DNA of 41,841 nt from a virus, in the IMG/VR virus record IMGVR_UViG_3300048929_000326, positions 1-41,841 of that record. The stretch is one strand, 5' to 3'. Positions 6,124 through 38,970 of the stretch are shown piece after piece (the stretch's first letter is position 1; each line of letters begins with the position of its first letter). The position numbers and the translations under genes are program-made. The notes below the pieces were generated by a model. It was given only the letters and a program-made list of their open reading frames with translations, did no database searches and had not been told where the DNA came from.

Positions 6124-7167
6124 ATGAGCGTTGACGTCTTCAGGGTTGGCCGGACTTACCACTATCGATTCCAGGTGCGGCCATTCGCGCGCGTCCAGCG
6201 CAGCACGCGCTTGCGCGACAAGCAGAAGGCGTTGGCTGTGGCCGAGCGCGCGTACAACGCCGCGGTTGCGCGCGCCAACGGCGGGGACCCGGTGCCGACG
6301 CTGATCGAGCTGATCAACGACTGGCATGCTGTCCGCGCGTGCCACTCCAGCGCGCACCACGTCCGCAGCATCAGGACTTTCACGAAGCTGCACCTGTACG
6401 GCATGGGCGACAAGCTGGTGAGCGAATTGGACACCACTACCGTCGAACGAGCCCGCGCGCTGCACCTGGACGGCCGCTCTTTCTCCACCGCAAACCACTG
6501 GCTGCGCATCCTCAAGCTGCTGGTGAGCTGGGCCGTCAAGCGCAACATCCTGCCTCGTCTGCCGTGGGACGTTGCAATGCTCAGCGTCCAGAAGCGCCCG
6601 CGAGCGATCCTGCCAATGGCCGACGTGCTGGCGTGGTTCGAAGTGATCGACCGCGCCGGCCGCGCGCCGGCGCTCAGCACCGCCGCGCGGCTGATGCTGT
6701 GGCTGGGTCTGCGCGAATCCGAGGTGATCACCGCCCGGTGGGAGTGGTTCGACTGGGAGCGCGCCACCTACACGCCGGGCCTGACGAAGGGGCGGGAGGC
6801 CGACGCACTGCGGGTGCTTCCCCAGCTGGCCGAATACCTGGCGCCGCGCCGCACGCCCGAGGGGCTGCTGGTCTGCCGCACCGGTGGCGCTCCGTACGGG
6901 CCGGGCTTCATGCGTGACGTCATCCAGGCGGCCAACAGCGCGTGCAAGATCAAGGGCATCACCCCGCACCGCCTACGCGGCACGATCGCCACATGGCTGT
7001 CGGAGAACGGCGCGCCGGCGCAAGACGTCAAGGCTTTCCTCCGGCACAAGGACATCCGGACGACGATGGCCTACCTCGAAAAGAACATGGACCGAGTCAG
7101 CGCCGCACAAGGAAAAATCGCCGAAAAAGCGGGTTTAACACGGCGAGAAAATGGCGAACACCTTTGA
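6124..7167 (+). CDS. Tyrosine recombinase / phage integrase
   Basis: A 347-residue protein with a complete tyrosine-recombinase active site: R197 (LGLRESEV), K222 (LTKGREAD), H282 and R285 (TPHRLRGT), H308 (LRHKDIRTT) and nucleophile Y317 (MAYLEKN). The N-terminal ~55 residues form an arm/SAM-like beta domain (HYRFQV…RSTRLRDKQKA), followed by a helical core-binding domain. It starts 15 bp after the P-like gene. Unusually, it lies inside the early operon between replication and late genes, about 25 kb from the probable attR. It may integrate the phage, or resolve other sites if a second integrase lies left of the window. Confidence 0.9.
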   Translation: MSVDVFRVGRTYHYRFQVRPFARVQRSTRLRDKQKALAVAERAYNAAVARANGGDPVPTLIELINDWHAVRACHSSAHHVRSIRTFTKLHLYGMGDKLVSELDTTTVERARALHLDGRSFSTANHWLRILKLLVSWAVKRNILPRLPWDVAMLSVQKRPRAILPMADVLAWFEVIDRAGRAPALSTAARLMLWLGLRESEVITARWEWFDWERATYTPGLTKGREADALRVLPQLAEYLAPRRTPEGLLVCRTGGAPYGPGFMRDVIQAANSACKIKGITPHRLRGTIATWLSENGAPAQDVKAFLRHKDIRTTMAYLEKNMDRVSAAQGKIAEKAGLTRRENGEHL

Positions 7168-7193: not shown

Positions 7194-7301
7194 ATGATTA
7201 TTGAGGATCATCAGAAACAAACCAGCCCGGCGTCACAGAAGCGCTGGCAAGAAGACAAGAACCAACCGCCAAACGAGGGATCATCATGCTGCAGCGAGTG
7301 A
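7194..7301 (+). CDS. Possible small protein preceding the Q-position gene
   Basis: A 35-residue frame (MIIEDHQKQTSPASQKRW… ending SSCCSE) overlaps the first 16 bases of the Q-position gene. Codons are plausible and the overlap suggests translational coupling, but the ribosome-binding site is weak (GGAA). It could equally be leader sequence. Confidence 0.3.
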   Translation: MIIEDHQKQTSPASQKRWQEDKNQPPNEGSSCCSE

Positions 7302-7681
7302 AGAAACAAAATGTACAGGCCGCCACGTGGTCGCGCCCGGACCCGCTGGACTTCTGTCTGGCGGTGTGGAAAGACTGGATGGCCAGCTCGGGCCAGCGCA
7401 ACCTGGGCGCTCGGATCATGGGCGGCCTGGTTGGCGAAAGCGATGGTCATGGATACGACATCCATGAGGCGCAGCACAGCCATGACATGCAGATCGCCGC
7501 GGCGACCGATGCGATGATCGACAGTTTGCCGCGACTGCATGTCTGGGCAATCTACAAGAGCTGCAGCATCTCAACAGCATGGCGCTTCCCGAATGCGGAC
7601 CTTGTGACTGTGGCCACAGAGGCCCGCACCGAGCTGACTGAGAAGCTGAAAAAAAATGAATGTACCCGTAACCTTTTTTAA
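7286..7681 (+). CDS. Q-position late regulator candidate
   Basis: A 131-residue protein (GAGGG ribosome-binding site) is the last gene before an extended -10 promoter with a terminated leader. That is exactly where lambda-like phages encode the antiterminator Q. The C-terminal ~55 residues (TDAMIDSLPRLHVWAIYKSC…AWRFPNAD…KLKKN) recur in two truncated copies at 32830-33011 and 34212-34394, so this module is mobile or recombinogenic. I do not recognise a named family, and antitermination is inferred from synteny only. If correct, it would let RNA polymerase starting just downstream pass the leader terminator and the many hairpins in the late operon. Confidence 0.6.
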   Translation: MLQRVKKQNVQAATWSRPDPLDFCLAVWKDWMASSGQRNLGARIMGGLVGESDGHGYDIHEAQHSHDMQIAAATDAMIDSLPRLHVWAIYKSCSISTAWRFPNADLVTVATEARTELTEKLKKNECTRNLF

Positions 7682-7688
7682 TTTTTTC

Positions 7689-7697
7689 TGATATAGT
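7689..7697 (+). promoter_or_regulatory. Late promoter, extended -10 (pR'-like)
   Basis: TG-A-TATAGT (7689-7697) is an extended -10 element preceded by a T-rich tract. No good -35 is seen, as expected when the extended -10 compensates. It lies directly after the Q-position gene and before a terminated leader. Homologous -10 elements occur at about 33793 and 35557. Confidence 0.65.
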
Positions 7698-7706
7698 GCA
7701 CGCACA

Positions 7707-7765
7707 CCGGGATTCGTTCGCCCGGAGAAAAGTAAGCCCACCGCCGCAAGGTCGTGGGCTTTTTT
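7707..7765 (+). terminator. Two-hairpin leader and intrinsic terminator (tR'-like), copy 1
   Basis: Hairpin 1 is CCGGG-N9-CCCGG (7707-7725), a possible pause signal. Hairpin 2 is GCCCAC…GTGGGC (7736-7759) with six T residues, an intrinsic terminator. Together they would yield a short (~65 nt) leader RNA like lambda 6S RNA unless antitermination occurs. The same two-hairpin layout recurs twice to the right of attR. Confidence 0.75.
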
Positions 7766-7793
7766 GTTTTGCAGCCGCGATTGCGAGGTTTTC

Positions 7794-14451: not shown

Positions 14452-16035
14452 ATGACAGTCCGCCTGCTTTGCGCTTATTCGATCTACCCGCAGAACGCCA
14501 TCGTCACCCTTGATGCGGGGACTGAGGCCGGCCTGATCGCAGCCAAAACTGCATCGGCTGACACGACAGGCGGACTCCTATACGTCGCCCCTCCCGTTCC
14601 CGTCCGATTGTCCGGACAAGCCGCCATGCCCAAAAGGACGATTTCCGGACCTATCGCCTTCGTTCCTGATAGCCCAGTTTCCGGCGGCTCCTGCTCGTTC
14701 GGGTTGGTCGCTGACGGGGTTAATGTGCCGGACTTCTCGGCGTTTAGCGCCCATTCCAGTGACCTGGGCTATCTCAACACGGCGGGCTATCTTAATTTGG
14801 TGGAATGCTTCCACCTTGCCGGCGTAAATTTCTACTCGATATCGCAGCCTGCCGTTCAGACAGTTGCAGACACCACGGCGCCGACAGTTACTGGCGCTGC
14901 CGTGGCAAACACTACTCCGACCGTAATTGCAGTATCGATCAGCGAAGCGCTCGCGTCAGCGTATACGCCTGACGTTTCGACATTTTCCGTTGCCGGCCAC
15001 CCGATTGTGCAGGCTGCGATCACCGGCTCCACTCTAAATCTCACGACGAGCACGGCTTTTGTCAATGGTGAGGCCGCACGCACTCTTTCCTACGTTCAGC
15101 CCGCAACAAATGGTCTGCGCGATGCAGCTGGCAATTTGATGGCTTCATTCTCCGGCCGCGCGATTACGAACAACGTTGCACCCGCCGATACCACCGCTCC
15201 GGTGATCCAGTCGGCCAGCATCAACGGTGCGACGCTGACGATGGTCTACAACGAGACGTTGACCAGCAACAACCCGACGCCAGCAGCGTTTGCCCTGGTG
15301 CTCGATGGCGGCGCCGCAGTGGCGCCAATGAGTGCCGTCGCGTCTGGTACGAACGTTGTCTTGACCTTTGCCGCTGCTGCTACGGCTGGCCAAGTCGCCA
15401 CTCTCGGCTACACGCCAGGGGCTGTTGCGATCAAAGACGCAGCTGGCAATAACGCAGCAGCGCTGGTCGGGCAGGCCGTAACCAATGGCACGCCGTCGGC
15501 GGGAGCGACTGCCGGGCGTCTGACTTCATTGCTGCGCATGACGGAATCGGGTTCGGTTGCGCCGTACACCTACACCGGTACGGGTGGTGAATTTTCAGGT
15601 TCAAACGGGGTTGATGGTGAAGGCCGACTGACTGTAGCCTTCCAAAATGGAGTTGATGGATCAGTAACGATGCAGACGCTGACCACGCCGGTGGCAACTA
15701 CTGGCCCAGAAACGTTGCTGTCGGTTGATGTATCGAATGCTTCAGGCATGCGTTATGGGACTATGGATTACGCCCTGGTCAACCATCCGGCCGGCTACAG
15801 CACCTTCACGAATGGCGCGGCTGGTCCCGCCTCAGCGGTTCTGGGCGCCGCAAACGATTATCAGCGCGTCAGCCGCGTCGGCTCCTCGCTGCTCTTCGAT
15901 GTGTCGAAAGATGGCGGCGCGACATGGACCAATATCCGAACATTCACCGGTGTTTCCACCGGAGTGTTGTACGTGTTTGTCCGGACCGCCTTTGCGGCGC
16001 AATTCACCAACTTGATGACGACGGGGTTGGCATGA
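14452..16035 (+). CDS. Adhesin-like head-region protein with SwmB-type repeats
   Basis: A 527-residue protein. The N-terminal ~135 residues (MTVRLLCAYSIYPQNAIVT…SISQPAVQ) form a unit that also opens the homologue at 37378. Two ~100-residue Ig-like repeats follow, each introduced by DTTAPV and containing SEALxxA or NETLTSNNPTPAAF and GLRDAAGN or AIKDAAGNNAA. This is the pattern of SwmB/Ig-like repeats of surface proteins. The C-terminal ~170 residues (TSLLRMTESGSVAPYTY… to the end) look like a beta-sandwich, possibly carbohydrate-binding. It lies among head genes and overlaps the SGNH-hydrolase gene. It is probably a virion surface decoration or receptor-contact protein; this is inferred. Confidence 0.65.
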   Translation: MTVRLLCAYSIYPQNAIVTLDAGTEAGLIAAKTASADTTGGLLYVAPPVPVRLSGQAAMPKRTISGPIAFVPDSPVSGGSCSFGLVADGVNVPDFSAFSAHSSDLGYLNTAGYLNLVECFHLAGVNFYSISQPAVQTVADTTAPTVTGAAVANTTPTVIAVSISEALASAYTPDVSTFSVAGHPIVQAAITGSTLNLTTSTAFVNGEAARTLSYVQPATNGLRDAAGNLMASFSGRAITNNVAPADTTAPVIQSASINGATLTMVYNETLTSNNPTPAAFALVLDGGAAVAPMSAVASGTNVVLTFAAAATAGQVATLGYTPGAVAIKDAAGNNAAALVGQAVTNGTPSAGATAGRLTSLLRMTESGSVAPYTYTGTGGEFSGSNGVDGEGRLTVAFQNGVDGSVTMQTLTTPVATTGPETLLSVDVSNASGMRYGTMDYALVNHPAGYSTFTNGAAGPASAVLGAANDYQRVSRVGSSLLFDVSKDGGATWTNIRTFTGVSTGVLYVFVRTAFAAQFTNLMTTGLA

Positions 16036-30404: not shown

Positions 30405-31106
30405 TCATAGCAATCCTATTTGTACATCTGCGGTAGGCGTCAACGGCGCCTGCTTCTTGGCGCGCGGCGGCACCGGGAATTCCCACGCGCGCATCAGTTC
30501 GGCGGGATAGGGGCGCAGGAAGCTGCGCGCGAACTCTGGGTCTGTGCAGCCCAGCCACTCATCCCACTCCATCTGCGGCACGATCACCAGCGCGCGCTTT
30601 TCGTCGTCCGGCTTGTGGAAGCGCTGCATCAGCGGGTGTTCGTCAGCGTTGATCGTCAGTTGCGTGAATGAATGCTCTGGCCCGGTCTCGCCGTCCCATT
30701 CCCGCCACAGGCCGGCGACGGCAAACATCGACTGGTCTGCCATGCCGATCCCCCAGCGCACCGCCTTGCCGCTCTCGTAGTTCGGTTCGTAGAACGCGGT
30801 CATCGGCACCAGGCACAGCTGTGACTTCTTCCAGGCGCCGGAGAATGAGCGCAGCTGGCCGACTGTTTCAGCCCGCGCGTTCATCGTGTCGAACGGGCGC
30901 ACGCCGGCGGGGATGCGTTTGCGCGGCACCATTCCGTAGCTGGCCAGCAGCGCCTCGCGGTCCCCGTCGGCGCTGCGGCGCACGATCGGCGCGCCATAGT
31001 CCTTCCAGGTCTCCGTGCGCCAGAAACCAGTGTCGTGCAGATCGATGCTGACGCCCATGACAGCTTCGAGCAACTCAGGTTCGGGCGGGCGGAAGTTGAC
31101 ACACAT
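30405..31106 (-). CDS. SOS response-associated peptidase (SRAP/YedK/HMCES family)
   Basis: A 233-residue protein that begins MCVNF, with the essential C2 exposed after removal of methionine. Further active-site residues are N76 (DTMNARAE), E107 (TAFYEP) and H164 (MQRFHKP). The family crosslinks covalently to abasic sites in single-stranded DNA and shields them during replication. A LexA box lies 60 bp upstream in the divergent intergenic region, and a -10 hexamer (TATAAT on the minus strand, at 31163-31168) overlaps its edge, so SOS control is likely. Carrying it on a prophage may protect replicating phage DNA. Confidence 0.88.
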   Translation of the reverse strand: MCVNFRPPEPELLEAVMGVSIDLHDTGFWRTETWKDYGAPIVRRSADGDREALLASYGMVPRKRIPAGVRPFDTMNARAETVGQLRSFSGAWKKSQLCLVPMTAFYEPNYESGKAVRWGIGMADQSMFAVAGLWREWDGETGPEHSFTQLTINADEHPLMQRFHKPDDEKRALVIVPQMEWDEWLGCTDPEFARSFLRPYPAELMRAWEFPVPPRAKKQAPLTPTADVQIGLL

Positions 31107-32371: not shown

Positions 32372-32418
<47 letters not shown>

Positions 32419-32829: not shown

Positions 32830-33011
32830 TGGCCACTGACGCGATGATCAGCAGCCTGAGTCGGTTGCACGTGTGGGCTATTTATCGTTCTTGTAGCTTG
32901 GCGAACGTCTGGAACTTCCCGAATGCCTCTCTGGCCGATGTGTCTATCGAGGCCCGGATTGAACTAGCGGCAAAGCTCCGCCGTAACATCTGCACGGCGG
33001 TACTGTTCTAG
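32830..33011 (+). pseudogene. Truncated Q-position gene, copy 2
   Basis: The ~60 residues (MATDAMISSLSRLHVWAIYR… to ICTAVLF) match the C-terminal half of the gene at 7286-7681; the N-terminal ~73 residues are missing. A short frame (32765-32839) sits where the N-terminus should be but is unrelated. It might be a functional short form, since the frame is intact and no stops interrupt it. It is followed by a PLD-like gene and then leader copy 2. Confidence 0.6.
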
Positions 33012-33059
33012 GGAAAGATGCTAGAATAGTTGCCCATCTGTAAAAACATTGAGGTGAAG

Positions 33060-33761
33060 ATGAGGCCGTCAAATGAGCAGTTTGCTGCCGCTTTCGACTC
33101 GTTGGCAAGGAGTATGCCTGACAAACGTGCGTTGTCACATGATAAGCTTGAAAATCACGAGTGGTTGGGTGAGGCAGCTGGTCTGATTCAATTGGCAGAT
33201 CCACTTAGAGCTGTCTCGTTTAAAGCTGACGTTGAAAGACTGCACAACTCGGGATATATGCCGCTCGAGATCGCGCAGAGGATTGCTGTCACCGTTATGC
33301 AATTTCGCACAGAATTTCGCTTAAAAACCATGGGGCCGCTGACTGTTGCGTTTGAATCCGGGCAGCAGTTCAGTTATTTTGACGAGATTCGACAGATTCT
33401 TGAAGCTGCAACATCGGACGTCTTGGTCGTTGATCCATATCTAGGTGCTGACTTCATCTCGAGATATTTACCTCATGTTAAGCCAGGAGTGCCGGTTCGA
33501 CTGCTTGTGCAAAATCAAGTCAGTCAGGTGCGTTCGGCCGCAGAGATGTTTTCAGTGCAGCATGGAACCGCCATTGAAACCAGACGATCAGATGGCCTTC
33601 ACGACCGGTATATCTTTATCAATGGCACCGAATGCTACCATAGCGGCGCAACCTTCAAAGACGGTGCTGTCAAGTCACCAACTACGCTTACGCAAATCAC
33701 CGATGCATTCGAAGCCGTTCGCTTGACGTACGAAAATGCTTGGTCCAGCAGCAAGCAATGA
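33060..33761 (+). CDS. PLD-like domain protein (cargo gene)
   Basis: A 233-residue protein; the start at 33060 has GAGGTGAAG directly upstream. The N-terminal ~100 residues are helical. The C-terminal half resembles a single phospholipase-D/nuclease-like domain: strand-turn VLVVDPYLGADF (about 121-132), LLVQNQVSQ, and a degenerate HxK-like motif HDRYIFIN (H191, R193, N198) followed by GATFKDGAVKSPTT. One motif per chain implies a dimer if active. Base composition is AT-richer than the core phage genes. It lies between a truncated Q-like gene and a late-promoter leader, a typical accessory or defence slot. Confidence 0.65.
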   Translation: MRPSNEQFAAAFDSLARSMPDKRALSHDKLENHEWLGEAAGLIQLADPLRAVSFKADVERLHNSGYMPLEIAQRIAVTVMQFRTEFRLKTMGPLTVAFESGQQFSYFDEIRQILEAATSDVLVVDPYLGADFISRYLPHVKPGVPVRLLVQNQVSQVRSAAEMFSVQHGTAIETRRSDGLHDRYIFINGTECYHSGATFKDGAVKSPTTLTQITDAFEAVRLTYENAWSSSKQ

Positions 33762-33792
33762 TTTTTAGATGTTTTAAGGCTGCATTTAGCTC

Positions 33793-33870
33793 TATTATCA
33801 TCGACGCATAGGCGGTCTTTACACGCCCGAAGAAAAGAAAGCCCACCGCCGCAAGGTTGTGGGCTTTTTT
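33793..33870 (+). terminator. Late promoter plus two-hairpin leader, copy 2
   Basis: TATTAT (33793-33798), hairpin GGCG-N9-CGCC (33811-33827) and terminator GCCCAC…GTGGGC (33841-33864) with six T residues. The layout and much of the terminator sequence are the same as at 7692-7765. Confidence 0.7.
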
Positions 33871-33872
33871 GT

Positions 33873-34084
33873 TTAGCTTTCTTTTGTCTTTGACTGGCCT
33901 GCGCGGTAGATCGCTTCCGTCAGATGAGTAAGCATCGTAGTCAAGTAAAGTGAATCTTGCTTTGCGGATTCATCGGAGGAGAGCCCTGAGCCCTTCGCGC
34001 CCAGAAGCTTAAGCGATTCGTTAGACAATGCTGATTTAACGATTTCTGCGGCTATTTCCGCCGCCCGGTACGGGCAAGTGACAT
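33873..34084 (-). pseudogene. Frameshifted small gene
   Basis: On the minus strand a good ribosome-binding site (AAGGAG) precedes ATG at 34084, but that frame stops after ten codons. The following frame, shifted by one base, is open for ~62 codons with protein-like composition (YRAAEIAAEIVKSALSNESL… ending YRAGQSKTKES). A one-base indel near 34065-34075 would restore one gene of ~70 residues. It is probably a decayed helical phage protein. Confidence 0.45.
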
Positions 34085-34127
34085 GTTTTTCTCCTTAGTT
34101 TTGGAGTTGCAATGTTAGCACTAACTT

Positions 34128-34204
34128 GCGGGCGTAGCTCAATGGGCAGAGCTGAAGCCTTCCAAGCTTATGACGAGAGTTCGATTCCCCCTTCGCTGGC
34201 TCTA
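34128..34204 (+). pseudogene. Decayed tRNA-Gly(TCC)
   Basis: The 5' half is nearly canonical (acceptor GCGGGCG, D-arm GCTC…GAGC, anticodon loop CTTCCAA with TCC). The T-stem is broken by extra C residues, and the acceptor 3' strand (CGCTGGC) no longer pairs fully. The CCA end is altered to CTA. It is closely related to the intact copy at 36080. Confidence 0.65.
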
Positions 34205-34211
34205 GCAGACG

Positions 34212-34394
34212 GGGACCGATGCGATGATCAGCAGCTTGAGCCGTCTGCACGTGTGGGCGATCTACCCGTCGTGCAGCTTGGCGACGGTGTGGAACTTTCC
34301 AAACAAATCTTTAGCTGAGGTTGCCGTTGAAGCCGGAGCCGAGCTTGTTGTGAAATTGAGAAGAAACTCATGCACCAGCTTGATTTTTTCATAG
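34212..34394 (+). pseudogene. Truncated Q-position gene, copy 3
   Basis: The frame GTDAMISSLSRLHVWAIYPS… to SCTSLIFS matches the same C-terminal half as copy 2, and its homology begins at nearly the same residue (TDAMI). A start could be ATG at 34224. It is followed by a membrane-protein gene and then leader copy 3. Confidence 0.6.
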
Positions 34395-34462
34395 TGAGTT
34401 GGGTAAATGGGCGATACTTGTTAAACGGATAAAGTCTGTTTTTTCATATGCGGAGGAGTGGT

Positions 34463-35482
34463 ATGGTCGTCAGCCGTTTTTCAACGCTACGCGAAAAGGT
34501 CTTACGTAGGCGATTGGTTCGCCATTCTTATTTTATTGGTCATTCTTACTTAATTGCTTTTGCTGTATCTGGTCTGACGTTTATCTCTATGGTATCGGAG
34601 TTGAGAAATACTTCGAGAATTGAGCCGGCAGGTTATGTATTTTTTGCTTCGCTATTAGCTCTACCATTTGGAATTGCTTATTTGGTACGGGCATTTTCTC
34701 GAGTGACTAGCATTTCCGAAATCAATATGGGAGGTACGCCGAAATACAGGTGCAAGCTAGCGATTATTTATTTACGAAGCAGAGCTCGACATCTACGTGT
34801 TTTTGCGTTACTGATGCTAGTCTTAATGTTGGTGGCGCTTGGAGGGGGGATATCAATTTTCCTCTCTGCGGATAAAAACGCCCAGAATGAAAACTCGCAG
34901 CAATTTATCGATTTAACCGAGATGAGGGGGCGAAACAAGGCGTTTATTAAATTTGCAGAATTAATTGAGCTGTCAAAAGGCAAGGACGTTCTCGATAAAG
35001 GTAGCTTTGAAGATTTAATGAATGCCTTAAATTCGTCGTCTTCACCTCAAGATCCTTTTAATAGGATTGCAAGAATGAATCCATGTATAAATCAAAAAAT
35101 AGCCTGTTGGGCTGTGATGAAGGAAAAATATGCGCAAGAGTTGAGTGATAGCGATAGTGTTGTGAAATTTATAGCTAACAAGCCAGAGGAAAGCGTTTAT
35201 AAATTTTGGATTTCTACGTTAGGTGTAAAAATTGGATCAATTGCTGTAGTTCTGTTTTTAGTGCAGTTGTTGAGTAGCCTTTATCGTTATAATATTAGAA
35301 TGGCAGCCTATTACGATGCGCGTGCTGATGCGATATTGCTTTCGGGTGCACTTGCACTAGATTCGTTGAAGAAGTTGTCGGAGATACTTTCTCCGGAAAT
35401 GCTCGATTTTTCAAAGACTCCTGAAACTCCGTGGGAAAAAATTATCGAAACGGCTGGAAAGCTTACCGGTAAGAAGGACTAG
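34463..35482 (+). CDS. Four-helix membrane protein (cargo gene), unknown
   Basis: A 339-residue protein; ATG 34463 is preferred over 34448 because GGAGGAG precedes it. Predicted membrane helices are at about 22-42, 54-74, 110-133 and 252-270. A ~115-residue domain between helices 3 and 4 contains two close cysteines (PCINQKIAC), and a ~65-residue soluble tail follows. Strongly AT-rich relative to the phage backbone, so it was acquired separately. Membrane proteins in this kind of slot are often exclusion or abortive-infection factors, but nothing in the sequence proves that. Confidence 0.6.
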   Translation: MVVSRFSTLREKVLRRRLVRHSYFIGHSYLIAFAVSGLTFISMVSELRNTSRIEPAGYVFFASLLALPFGIAYLVRAFSRVTSISEINMGGTPKYRCKLAIIYLRSRARHLRVFALLMLVLMLVALGGGISIFLSADKNAQNENSQQFIDLTEMRGRNKAFIKFAELIELSKGKDVLDKGSFEDLMNALNSSSSPQDPFNRIARMNPCINQKIACWAVMKEKYAQELSDSDSVVKFIANKPEESVYKFWISTLGVKIGSIAVVLFLVQLLSSLYRYNIRMAAYYDARADAILLSGALALDSLKKLSEILSPEMLDFSKTPETPWEKIIETAGKLTGKKD

Positions 35483-35533
35483 TGGCAGGCAGAACAAGAT
35501 AGGTCGCAATGATTGAGATTGCCTGCCGGGCAG

Positions 35534-35562
35534 TTGTAAACCTGATTGAGATCTGTTATTGT
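35534..35562 (+). promoter_or_regulatory. Late promoter, copy 3
   Basis: TTGTAA (35534-35539), a 17-bp spacer and TATTGT (35557-35562), with a TG extended -10 at 35554-35555. Equivalent to the promoter at 7689-7697. Confidence 0.6.
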
Positions 35563-35570
35563 ACGCGCAT

Positions 35571-35626
35571 AGGCGAACTTCGTTCGCCTAAAGAAAAGCC
35601 CACCACCGCAAGGTCGTGGGCTTTTT
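35571..35626 (+). terminator. Two-hairpin leader terminator, copy 3
   Basis: AGGCGAA-N5-TTCGCCT (35571-35589), then GCCCAC…GTGGGC (35598-35621) with five T residues. Hairpin 1 differs in sequence from copy 1, but its pairing is preserved. Confidence 0.75.
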
Positions 35627-35654
35627 GTTTTGCAGCCGCGATTGCGATGTTTCC

Positions 35655-36074: not shown

Positions 36075-36079
36075 TACCT

Positions 36080-36153
36080 GCGGGCGTAGCTCAATGGTAG
36101 AGCTACTGCCTTCCACGCAAGAGACAAGGGTTCGATTCCCTTCGCCCGCTCCA
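36080..36153 (+). tRNA. tRNA-Gly(TCC)
   Basis: The 74-nt cloverleaf has an encoded CCA: acceptor GCGGGCG/CGCCCGC is perfect, D-arm GCTC/GAGC, T-arm AAGGG-TTCGATT-CCCTT. The anticodon loop CTTCCAC gives TCC. The anticodon stem (ACTGC/GCAAG) pairs only at its three loop-proximal positions, so activity may be reduced. It lies between two phage-type small genes and is therefore phage-borne. Confidence 0.8.
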
Positions 36154-36410: not shown

Positions 36411-37292
36411 TTGGAGAAATACATTTCGATAGTGTGTAACGGACGATTTAGGCGCTTAGCTAAAATTATTGAAAGACCGGACGGGGATCTTATCATTGCG
36501 ATTTTTGCGGGATTGAATCGAGAAGATTCGGCTACGGATCGGATAAAGGATATCCACTTTTCGGTGCACCAGTCGAAAAAAATACCGCAGGGGAATTTGA
36601 TTAAAATGACGGTCTCTTCTGTCGAAGAGAGCCCGTTGAAGAACTATGCCTTTACCAGCGGCATCAAGGGGCGAGAAGGATTTTGGCACGTTTTGTCGTA
36701 TCGCTATACGGGCATGGAAGCAGATTATTTTGATATGCCTGAAGCGGAAGATAACTTTGTGATTCCGATCGGTTTTGAGCGTGAAACGGGAGTTCTCACG
36801 TTGGGCGTTTTCGTCGCCGGCGCGGAAGAGGAATTTCTTACCGATAGCGAGTTTTACACGCACTCCATTATTACGAAGCACTTTAATGTGACGCTGTTGG
36901 TTGCGATTAGTAATTTAGGTGCACTTCCGTTTGGTAATTTCTACGTGCCCAAAACGTTCAATCCTCTCGCGCCCACGGATGGCATCACCACCGAGCAGGC
37001 GTTTAAGCTGATGCGTGGTGTTTCCGCCGATGTCTGCGTTAAGCGATTTCGGATTTCGGTGATCAAAATGTTGTTGAACTCGTTGGAGAAATTATTGCAA
37101 CAATGTAATTTGCACGACGTTGCGATTTCAGATGAAGGCCTTGCGAACCTCAAATATAAATACCGAAAACTCGAATATCAAATGTATGACCTCATCCGGG
37201 CGTCACCAGAGGATTACCCGCTTGAACCTAATTTGCCTCCAGACTACTCGGTGAGGCCAAATTCTCCGATTCTATTGCGCTTTAAAAATTGA
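36411..37292 (+). CDS. Unknown protein (TTG start), accessory
   Basis: A 293-residue protein; TTG at 36411 follows GGAGGGGA at the correct distance. No known domain is recognised. The N-terminal ~130 residues look like beta strands (ISIVCNGRFRRLAKIIERP, DLIIAIFAG), and a helical region at about 195-250 precedes a proline-rich end (EPNLPPDYSVRPNSPILL). It occupies the place that HNH has in the left prophage, and it is AT-richer than the core genes. A cargo or defence role is possible but unproven. Confidence 0.55.
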   Translation: MEKYISIVCNGRFRRLAKIIERPDGDLIIAIFAGLNREDSATDRIKDIHFSVHQSKKIPQGNLIKMTVSSVEESPLKNYAFTSGIKGREGFWHVLSYRYTGMEADYFDMPEAEDNFVIPIGFERETGVLTLGVFVAGAEEEFLTDSEFYTHSIITKHFNVTLLVAISNLGALPFGNFYVPKTFNPLAPTDGITTEQAFKLMRGVSADVCVKRFRISVIKMLLNSLEKLLQQCNLHDVAISDEGLANLKYKYRKLEYQMYDLIRASPEDYPLEPNLPPDYSVRPNSPILLRFKN

Positions 37293-37332
37293 CGGCCAGT
37301 CCGAAATTTTTCTAAGTACATGATTGCTACTG

Positions 37333-37364
37333 CCGCGACGCATGCTGAATGCTGGCGGTTTTTT
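37333..37364 (+). terminator. Intrinsic terminator-like hairpin
   Basis: CCGC/GCGG and GCAT/ATGC stems separated by a small internal loop, followed by six T residues, immediately before the truncated adhesin gene. Confidence 0.6.
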
Positions 37365-37377
37365 ATTTGAGGTACAC

Positions 37378-38970
37378 ATGACTGTCCGCCTGTTGAAGCC
37401 CTACGCCCAACGCCCGGCCAACGCCATTGCCACGTTTGACGCGAGTGTCGAGGCAGGTCTGATTTCGGCAAACCAAGCCTCGGCGGATCTGACTGGCGGC
37501 GTGAAGTACTTTGTCCCGCGCCCTGGGCTGGCGTTGCAATCGAAGCAGATCGCAGTCGGCGCGGTGGCGTTGAAAATGGAAGAGCAGACCACGGTGGTAT
37601 TGCCGGAGGGGCAGGTCTTGTTGGTGACTGGCGCCGCCTCGACTGTTGGCACCGTTGCGCGCAGCGGAAGCTCGGACACTTGGGTTGTTGGCGTCGGTGC
37701 ACTTGCGCCGATCGGCCCGTATGCAGGAACGCATAAGTTCAGCCTCACTTGCGATAGCGGGAGTATTGTCGCAAGGGTGCAGGACGCAGTGCTGAACTTG
37801 TCGGGCGGCAGTGCGGTGGCCTTCAACGCCACAATCCCGCTGTCTGGAAACAACACGATGTCGAAGCAGGCTGTAAGTGGGCCAATCGCATTTGCCCCGG
37901 CGGCAGACCCTGTGCCTGGCGCGTCGTGCATCGCGATTTTGATAGCAGATGGCGTAAATGCGCCGACCTTTACGGGCGGCTTCGCCGCGGGCGATGCGGA
38001 ATGGGCAAGCTCACTCGGTTACGCGAACATCGCCGGCTATACGAACGTGATCCAGTTCTGGTACGACGGCGTTGGCTATCGCTACTCGATCTCTCAGCCT
38101 GCCAGACAAGTGGTCAGCGACACCACGGCACCGACTGCCACGGCGGCCGCCGTCGCGAACGCAACGCCAACCATTGTGGCGCTGACGATGTCCGAGGCGC
38201 TGGACGCAGCCAATGTTCCAGCGGCGTCGGCCTTCACGGTCAGCGGTCACGCAGTGTCGGCGGTAGCCATTTCTGGTGCTGTCGTCAACCTGACGGTGAG
38301 CACGCCGTTCGTCAATGGTGAAGCGGCCCGCACGCTGGCATATACGCAACCTGGGGCGAATGGTCTGCGCGATGCCGCTGGAAATCTTGCCGTCAGCTTT
38401 ACCGGTCGCGCGATCACAAACAACGTTGCGGCTGCCGACACCACCGCACCGGTGATCCAGTCGGCCAGCATCAACGGCGCGACGCTGACGATGACCTATA
38501 ACGAAACGCTGACGAGCAACAACCCGACGCCGGCAGCATTTGGGCTGGTGCTCGATGGAGGCGCGGCAGTTGCGCCAACAAGTGCAGTCGCGTCCGGTAC
38601 GAACGTCGTCTTGACCTTTGCCGCCGCTGCGACGGCTGGTCAAGTTGCCACCCTCGGCTACACCCCTGGGGCTGTCGCGATCAAAGATGCTGCTGGCAAC
38701 AACGCAGCATCGCTGGTCGGGCAGGCCGTGACCAATGGCACGCCGTCGGCGGGGGCAACTGCTGGGCGGCTTACTTCCTTGCTGCGCATGACGGAGGCGG
38801 GTTCGGTAGCGCCATACACTTACACCGGCACGGGTGGTGAATTTTCAGATTCAAACGGGGTCGATGGTGAAGGTCGCTTGACTGTAGCCTTCCAAAATGG
38901 CGTTGATGGGTCGGTAACGATGCAAGCGCTGACCACGCCGGTGGCTATCACTGACAAAATTCGTATGTAG
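37378..38970 (+). pseudogene. Adhesin-like gene, truncated second copy
   Basis: A 530-residue frame homologous to the head-region adhesin at 14452-16035. The first residues (MTVRLLKPYAQRPANAIATF) and the two DTTAP-type repeats match. From about 38310 to 38945 the DNA is highly similar to 15060-15700. The N-terminal region has an extra ~85-residue insert. The C-terminal ~110 residues are missing: after TTPVAIT the frame runs into unrelated DNA and ends IRM. The partner SGNH gene is also missing. This is the right-hand breakpoint of the prophage remnant. Confidence 0.75.

What the first reader, a model, noticed from the sequence alone, without database searches (positions are those of the whole stretch)
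32830..35626. Recurring 'Q-like C-terminus - cargo gene - late promoter/two-hairpin leader' cassettes
Three copies of one module are present. Copy 1 is the complete Q-position gene followed at once by the pR'-like promoter and leader (7286-7765). Copies 2 and 3 have only the last ~58 residues of that gene, then a different AT-rich gene (a PLD-like protein; a four-helix membrane protein), then the same promoter, pause hairpin and terminator. Both truncated copies begin homology at the same residue (TDAMI). The two constant flanks would let homologous recombination swap cargo into an infecting or resident phage. This looks like an undescribed accessory-gene (perhaps defence) hotspot between the late regulator and the late promoter. 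The repetition is seen; the hotspot and defence roles are inferred.
Basis: partly seen in the sequence, partly recalled or inferred. Interest (0 to 1): 0.8.

Follow-up and report, generated by a model that had tools for sequence, protein, structure and literature searches.

The report
Phage cargo slot beside late promoter
In a large, uncultured group of prophages of Duganella/Massilia-type soil bacteria, the point where the late-gene regulator ends and the late promoter begins is a slot that about one phage in ten has filled with one of several unrelated cargo genes, some resembling anti-phage defence or toxin-antitoxin genes; the repeated modules in this window are two such filled slots in a decayed neighbouring prophage.

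Summary
The window has one intact Q-position gene with its late promoter and leader (7286-7766), and two modules made of the Q C-terminus, a cargo gene and the leader (32.83-33.87 and 34.21-35.63 kb). The two modules lie outside the intact prophage: a partial tRNA-Pro(GGG) attachment core ends the prophage at about 32418, and they sit in a second, decayed prophage remnant.

Among 100 other loci with an intact Q, 10 have an insert exactly between Q and the leader, needing at least 6-8 independent changes on the Q tree; in nearly all others Q abuts the leader (its stop codon touches or overlaps the -10 box). Cargo genes are unrelated, mostly AT-richer, on either strand: PLD-fold protein, RelA/SpoT synthetase, HigB/HigA-like pair, HNH protein, membrane/coiled-coil proteins, small unknowns. 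Two match PADLOC candidate-defence families; the PLD relative sits beside a Type IIG restriction gene. Three phages show near-identical Q 5' ends and related leaders (79-97%) around a replaced Q 3' end plus cargo, the mark of homologous exchange.

The hotspot is well supported and I found no description of it. Defence is plausible for some cargo and untested. The truncated Q copies are relics. "Q" rests on position only.

The parts
7286..7681 (+). intact Q-position protein (131 aa), copy 1; no Pfam or PHROG family
   Evidence: family of about 100 homologues; AF2 model pLDDT 76, helical, no significant PDB match
7687..7766 (+). late promoter (TATAGT -10 just after the Q stop), pause-type hairpin, GAGAAAAG, terminator hairpin
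   Evidence: R1 model 77.4 bits; structure; alignment
32387..32418 (+). 3' end of tRNA-Pro(GGG), partial: attachment core; right end of the intact prophage
   Evidence: same 32-mer is the 3' end of intact tRNA-Pro(ggg) in relatives; in G003 an intact and a partial copy flank Q and its cargo 17.4 kb apart
32832..33011 (+). truncated Q C-terminus (58 aa), copy 2, remnant
33060..33761 (+). cargo 1: PLD-fold protein (233 aa), HDR in place of the catalytic HxK
   Evidence: PADLOC PDC-S05 E 2.8e-15; AF2 model against MITD1 7e-7 and Nuc 6e-5; homologue near Type IIG RM and PDC-S45
33791..33871 (+). late promoter/leader copy 2
   Evidence: R1 68.9 bits; fold
34124..34202 (+). degenerate tRNA-Gly copy between the two modules
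   Evidence: 78% to 36076-36151, not called by ARAGORN
34215..34394 (+). truncated Q C-terminus (57 aa), copy 3, remnant
34463..35482 (+). cargo 2: membrane protein (339-344 aa), four hydrophobic segments
   Evidence: no family
35552..35628 (+). late promoter/leader copy 3 (9-bp pause-type hairpin, terminator)
   Evidence: R1 78.5 bits; fold
36080..36153 (+). intact tRNA-Gly(tcc) downstream of module 3
   Evidence: ARAGORN

Best explanation
The junction between the Q-position gene and the late promoter is an accessory-gene (moron) slot in a large uncultured group of Burkholderiales (Oxalobacteraceae) prophages. In the usual, empty state the Q stop codon touches or overlaps the -10 box, and a TTGC/GTGC element 16-18 nt upstream lies inside the last Q codons. 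A cargo gene enters exactly at the stop codon without harming Q, and in most cases a new TTGC element is found at its 3' end, so the late promoter stays whole (shown by sequence). Cargo is then swapped between phages by homologous crossovers in Q and in the leader (sequence evidence in one group, inferred for the rest). In a lysogen I infer that the slot is a quiet, insulated place: Q is off, and transcription from the late promoter stops at the leader terminator, so cargo with its own promoter can be expressed for the host's benefit. Part of the cargo probably excludes other phages (inferred). Copies 2 and 3 of the window are two filled slots kept in a decayed neighbouring prophage, with intact cargo but broken Q.
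For: Leader directly after Q in most loci and displaced by inserts in the others. Ten occupied of 100 distinct loci with intact Q, 10 clusters of 85 at 95% identity, at least 6-8 changes on the tree. Inserts bounded by the Q stop and the -10 box, with TTGC 16-18 nt upstream of the -10 in 9 of 14 filled sites (background 1.3%, binomial P about 2e-14, post hoc) and TTGC or GTGC in 64 of 69 empty sites. Insert GC 0.41-0.51 in most cases against 0.57-0.62. Unrelated cargo families, one of them shared by three divergent phages (L016, L093, L162). Mosaic: L045 against L032 is 96% in the Q 5' end, 58% in the Q 3' end, then cargo, then leader 97%; empty-empty controls are flat. Defence hints: PDC-S05, PDC-S33 and RelA_SpoT E 1.6e-20, HigB/HigA-like pair, PLD homologue near Type IIG RM and PDC-S45.
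Against: Only 10% of loci are filled, and insert rates at other junctions were not measured. The DNA on the far side of the leader is also variable, so the slot may be one part of a wider variable zone. Antitermination by the Q-position protein is not shown: no Pfam, PHROG, PDB-sequence or significant fold match. The PADLOC PDC families are mostly untested candidates (PMC12988326). Most cargo families have no defence annotation. The mosaic pattern was clear in one clade only; in L005, L016, L122 and L012 the Q profile is flat.
Confidence: 0.75

Rival explanations
1. The three modules are only a local tandem duplication and decay product of one prophage, with no wider meaning.
For: Copies 2 and 3 lie in a remnant outside the prophage, with a degenerate tRNA-Gly and broken genes. 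Truncated Q is not seen in intact relatives.
Against: The two cargo genes are unrelated, and full-length Q plus cargo plus leader recurs in ten other loci with other cargo.
Confidence: 0.1
2. Mobile cassettes: the unit [Q C-terminus - cargo - leader] is itself a mobile element that inserts at, or recombines from, a fixed point in Q (TDAMI).
For: Three truncated Q copies (two here, one in G190) begin at or next to the same residue. L045, L048 and L093 have replaced Q 3' ends.
Against: No recombinase or repeat was seen at the boundaries of the window copies. In G190 an IS30-like transposase lies next to the break. The TDAMI block is among the best conserved parts of Q, so breaks there may be ordinary homologous or illegitimate recombination. 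The ten intact filled loci all have full-length Q.
Confidence: 0.12
3. Cargo serves the lytic programme, for example as an extra late-gene regulator or lysis-timing gene co-transcribed with Q, rather than the lysogen.
For: Many inserts are on the Q strand directly after Q.
Against: Two inserts (RelA/SpoT; HigB/HigA-like pair) are antisense to Q. Cargo families are defence/TA-like or AT-rich strangers. Cargo stays intact where Q is truncated or frameshifted (window copies 2 and 3, L016, L162).
Confidence: 0.13

Closest known systems
P2 and P4 antiviral hotspots (Rousset et al. 2022, PMC9122126)
   Same: small loci with high turnover of unrelated genes between two conserved phage genes, many of them anti-phage
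   Different: P2/P4 hotspots lie next to the cos site of P2-like phages and their satellites; here the slot is between the late regulator and the late promoter of another prophage group, and cargo is mostly a single gene
phi80 taiEcA/orf63 late-region moron (PMC11364771)
   Same: an immune gene expressed in the lysogen, antisense to the Q-controlled late operon
   Different: tai interrupts the Q-controlled late operon; tai homologues mostly lie upstream of the packaging genes. Here the insert is before the late promoter, between the Q stop and the -10 box
lambdoid moron site between the repressor and N (rexAB, bstA; PMC7067206)
   Same: lysogen-expressed accessory genes at a fixed place in a temperate phage
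   Different: different position and a different transcription unit
region between Q and the toxin genes in Shiga-toxin phages (PMC6266700)
   Same: accessory genes near Q and pR', sequence diversity in that region
   Different: there the cargo is downstream of pR' and Q-dependent; [quoted passage not shown]
PADLOC PDC-S05 and PDC-S33 candidate defence proteins
   Same: the PLD-fold and RelA/SpoT cargo match these models
   Different: partial matches; those families are mostly untested, and the PLD cargo lacks the canonical HxK

Membership tests
prophage diversity/defence hotspot (Rousset type) | many unrelated genes between two conserved phage features across related phages | tested here: met
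   10 of 100 loci filled, at least 7 unrelated cargo families, at least 6-8 changes
prophage diversity/defence hotspot (Rousset type) | more turnover at this junction than at other junctions of the same phages | not tested
   only the stretch after the leader was measured, and it is variable too
prophage diversity/defence hotspot (Rousset type) | many cargo genes have anti-phage activity | tested here: inconclusive
   two PADLOC candidate matches, one TA pair, one HNH; others without family; no assay possible
moron | extra gene inserted between two features adjacent in relatives, atypical composition | tested here: met
   empty sites in most loci; GC 0.41-0.51 against 0.57-0.62 in most inserts, the exception being L114 at 0.58 against 0.60
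moron | own promoter and terminator, expressed in the lysogen | tested here: inconclusive
   antisense orientation of two inserts implies their own promoter; the consensus scan of 32.4-36.4 kb found no promoter-like site on the cargo strand; expression not testable
lambda-type Q antiterminator | sequence or fold homology to Q families | tested here: not met
   no Pfam, PHROG or PDB sequence match; Foldseek PDB best E 3.7
lambda-type Q antiterminator | gene before a late promoter followed by a pause element and terminator | tested here: met
   conserved in most loci by sequence and single-sequence folding
lambda-type Q antiterminator | makes RNA polymerase read through the leader terminator | not testable with these tools
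   needs a reporter assay
phospholipase D superfamily (cargo 1) | PLD fold | tested here: met
   Foldseek of the AF2 model (pLDDT 74): MITD1 7e-7, Nuc 6e-5
phospholipase D superfamily (cargo 1) | HxKxxxxD catalytic motif | tested here: not met
   LHDRYIFIN in the cargo, HDR in its close relatives

The most novel reading that the evidence does not exclude
A previously undescribed class of prophage defence hotspot sits between the late regulator and the late promoter across a large uncultured Burkholderiales phage group. The promoter is split so that its upstream element can be supplied either by the regulator gene or by the cargo gene, and cargo is traded by homologous exchange through conserved flanks.
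Probability: 0.45. Interest if true: 0.72.

Novelty: new variant of a known kind. Interest (0 to 1): 0.6.

Why it matters
It gives a precise address, defined by a late-leader sequence model and a Q stop codon, at which cargo genes of uncultured prophages can be collected automatically, including families with no annotation (a membrane/coiled-coil protein seen in three divergent phages, a 150-161-aa family, a four-segment membrane protein). Position-based collection of this sort has yielded new anti-phage systems at other hotspots (PMC9122126). It also shows how a promoter that overlaps a coding sequence can tolerate repeated gene insertion.

Tried and rejected
Rejected: copies 2 and 3 as parts of the intact prophage (attachment core at 32387-32418). 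Rejected: truncated Q as the normal unit (only in remnants). RNAalifold on the leader alignment gave a spurious long-range helix because the hairpins were misaligned, so covariation of the pause hairpin is not claimed; the model R1 built on it is in effect a sequence model; single-sequence folds were used instead. A simple TTGACA test of the -35 was not significant; the TTGC element was then counted, post hoc. Q fold search against PDB gave nothing significant, with scattered sigma-region-4 matches at E 6-9; the viral library's best match was an unnamed phage protein at E 4e-3. No homologue of Q was found in 50,697 phage records, so no characterised relative could be used. L130 (a Q without a clear leader) stayed out of the occupied/empty count; L131 and L153 (likewise without a clear leader) were not placed in the tree; L035 ends inside its insert. 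A slip in the table script took the weakest instead of the best hit for the window and L016, so neither is in the tree; both were judged separately. Literature searches found no description of a slot between Q and the late promoter, but the library lacks most subscription journals.

Full report
What is in the window. The window is a 41.8-kb virus record. A complete Q-position gene (7286-7681, 131 aa) is followed by a promoter with TATAGT just after its stop codon, a small hairpin, GAGAAAAG and a terminator hairpin (7687-7766). Two further leaders lie at 33791-33871 and 35552-35628; a model built from 28 leaders finds these three and nothing else strong. Each of the two is preceded by a cargo ORF and by the last 57-58 residues of the Q-position protein.

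Where it lies. At 32387-32418 is a 32-mer that in relatives is the 3' end of tRNA-Pro(GGG). In genome G003 (Duganella sp. CF517) an intact tRNA-Pro and a partial copy 17.4 kb apart flank a Q gene and its cargo. In the window only the partial copy is present. The intact prophage therefore ends at about 32418 and copies 2 and 3 lie beyond it, in a second remnant that runs to about 38970 and ends before host-type genes (PEP-CTERM protein). The remnant is decayed: Q is truncated twice, one tRNA-Gly is degenerate while a second is intact, a 63-aa gene is broken and a tail-type gene is cut short. Both cargo ORFs and both leaders are intact.

Survey. The Q-position protein has no Pfam or PHROG family, no PDB relative by sequence and no match in 50,697 phage records. 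Scans of IMG/VR, GTDB genomes and 394 genomes of one family gave about 100 distinct loci. I located Q and the leader in them. Among 100 distinct loci with an intact Q (the window itself not counted), 10 have an insert between Q and the leader; they fall in 10 of 85 clusters at 95% Q identity. The other 90 were scored as empty: in nearly all the leader follows the Q stop directly, in a few (for example L058, L152) after some 40 nt. On a Q tree the label needs 8 changes, and at least 6 are forced by well-supported branches. The tree is short and many forks are open.

Cargo. L012: RelA/SpoT synthetase, antisense (PF04607 1.6e-20; PADLOC PDC-S33 1.3e-15). L122: Gp49/HigB-like toxin and HTH_37 antitoxin, antisense (PF05973 1.7e-23; PF13744 1.5e-24). 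L061: HNH protein. L093, and also L016 and L162: one family of 256-263-aa proteins with hydrophobic segments and a probable coiled coil. L037, L045 and L048: one family of 150-161 aa. L005 (156 aa), L049 (179 aa) and L114 (99 and 131 aa): no family. Window: the PLD-fold protein and a membrane protein. L016 has a frameshifted Q and L162 a truncated, frameshifted Q, so these two are not among the ten. Insert GC is 0.41-0.51 in most cases against 0.57-0.62 for the loci; L114 is an exception.

The PLD cargo. The AlphaFold model (pLDDT 74, shallow alignment) matches MITD1 (7e-7), FAM83, TrmBL2 and the nuclease Nuc (6e-5). The HKD lysine is missing (HDR), so nuclease activity should not be assumed. 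PADLOC gives PDC-S05 (2.8e-15). A 47% identical homologue in G166 lies next to PDC-S45 (2e-78) in a row of genes that begins with a Type IIG restriction-modification gene (2e-164), a defence-island setting. The membrane cargo has only one weak relative in the genomes searched.

Anatomy of the slot. In empty loci the Q stop touches or overlaps the -10 box (typically TGATATAGT), and TTGC or GTGC occurs 16-18 nt before the -10 in 64 of 69 loci where a -10 was recognised, inside the last Q codons (in 25 loci no -10 of the listed forms was recognised). In filled loci the left boundary is the Q stop and the right boundary is the -10 region, and 9 of 14 have a TTGC element 16-18 nt before the -10, now supplied by the cargo end (background 1.3%). 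The element was noticed after looking, so the P value is only a guide. Whether it is a -35 box or a regulator site is not known.

How cargo moves. L045, L048 and L093 share 86-96% identity with the empty phages L032 and L036 in the 5' part of Q, drop to 52-58% in the last 120 nt, carry cargo, and return to 81-97% in the leader. The closest empty-empty controls in the same clade stay at 82-94% throughout Q. L093 and L045 also differ in cargo and Q 3' end (54%) while sharing the Q 5' end (92%). This is what exchange by homologous crossovers in Q and in the leader would give. In L005, L012, L016 and L122 the Q profile is flat, which fits simple insertion or loss at the stop codon.

Truncated Q. 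Truncation at the TDAMI residue occurs three times: twice here and once in G190, where an IS30-like transposase lies next to the break and Q is also frameshifted. The coincidence is noted, not explained; the block is highly conserved, which may favour recombination there. In every case of broken Q (window copies 2 and 3, L016, L162) the cargo ORF is intact, which suggests, without proving it, that the host keeps it.

Limits. Defence activity, cargo expression and the Q function are inferred. The region after the leader is also variable: 18 to about 2000 nt to the next conserved gene. I did not measure insert rates at other junctions, so 'hotspot' means repeated independent insertion of unrelated genes at one exact point, not a proven excess over the rest of the genome. 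PADLOC PDC families are mostly unvalidated (PMC12988326).

Noticed in passing
window 6124-7167: A tyrosine recombinase gene lies between replication genes and the Q-position gene, far from the right attachment core at 32387-32418; its role (integrase or other) is unclear.
   Followed up: no
window 30405-31106 (-): SRAP-family (SOS response-associated peptidase) gene near the right end of the prophage (Pfam E 9e-26).
   Followed up: partly
window 36080-36153 and 34124-34202: Intact tRNA-Gly(tcc) and a degenerate copy of it, one after each of the two remnant modules.
   Followed up: partly
window 36411-37292: Intact 293-aa ORF of unknown family in the remnant, after the broken 63-aa gene; another possible cargo gene downstream of the leader.
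   Followed up: no
L162 1892-2371: A 159-aa ORF just after the leader is related to cargo found before the leader in L005 and L037, so the same family occurs on both sides of the leader.
   Followed up: partly
L163 14625-15089 (G190): IS30-like transposase directly beside a truncated Q copy.
   Followed up: partly
window 14452-16035 and 37324-38970: Two tail-type proteins with SWM repeats, 80% identical over 880 bp, one in the prophage and one in the remnant.
   Followed up: no
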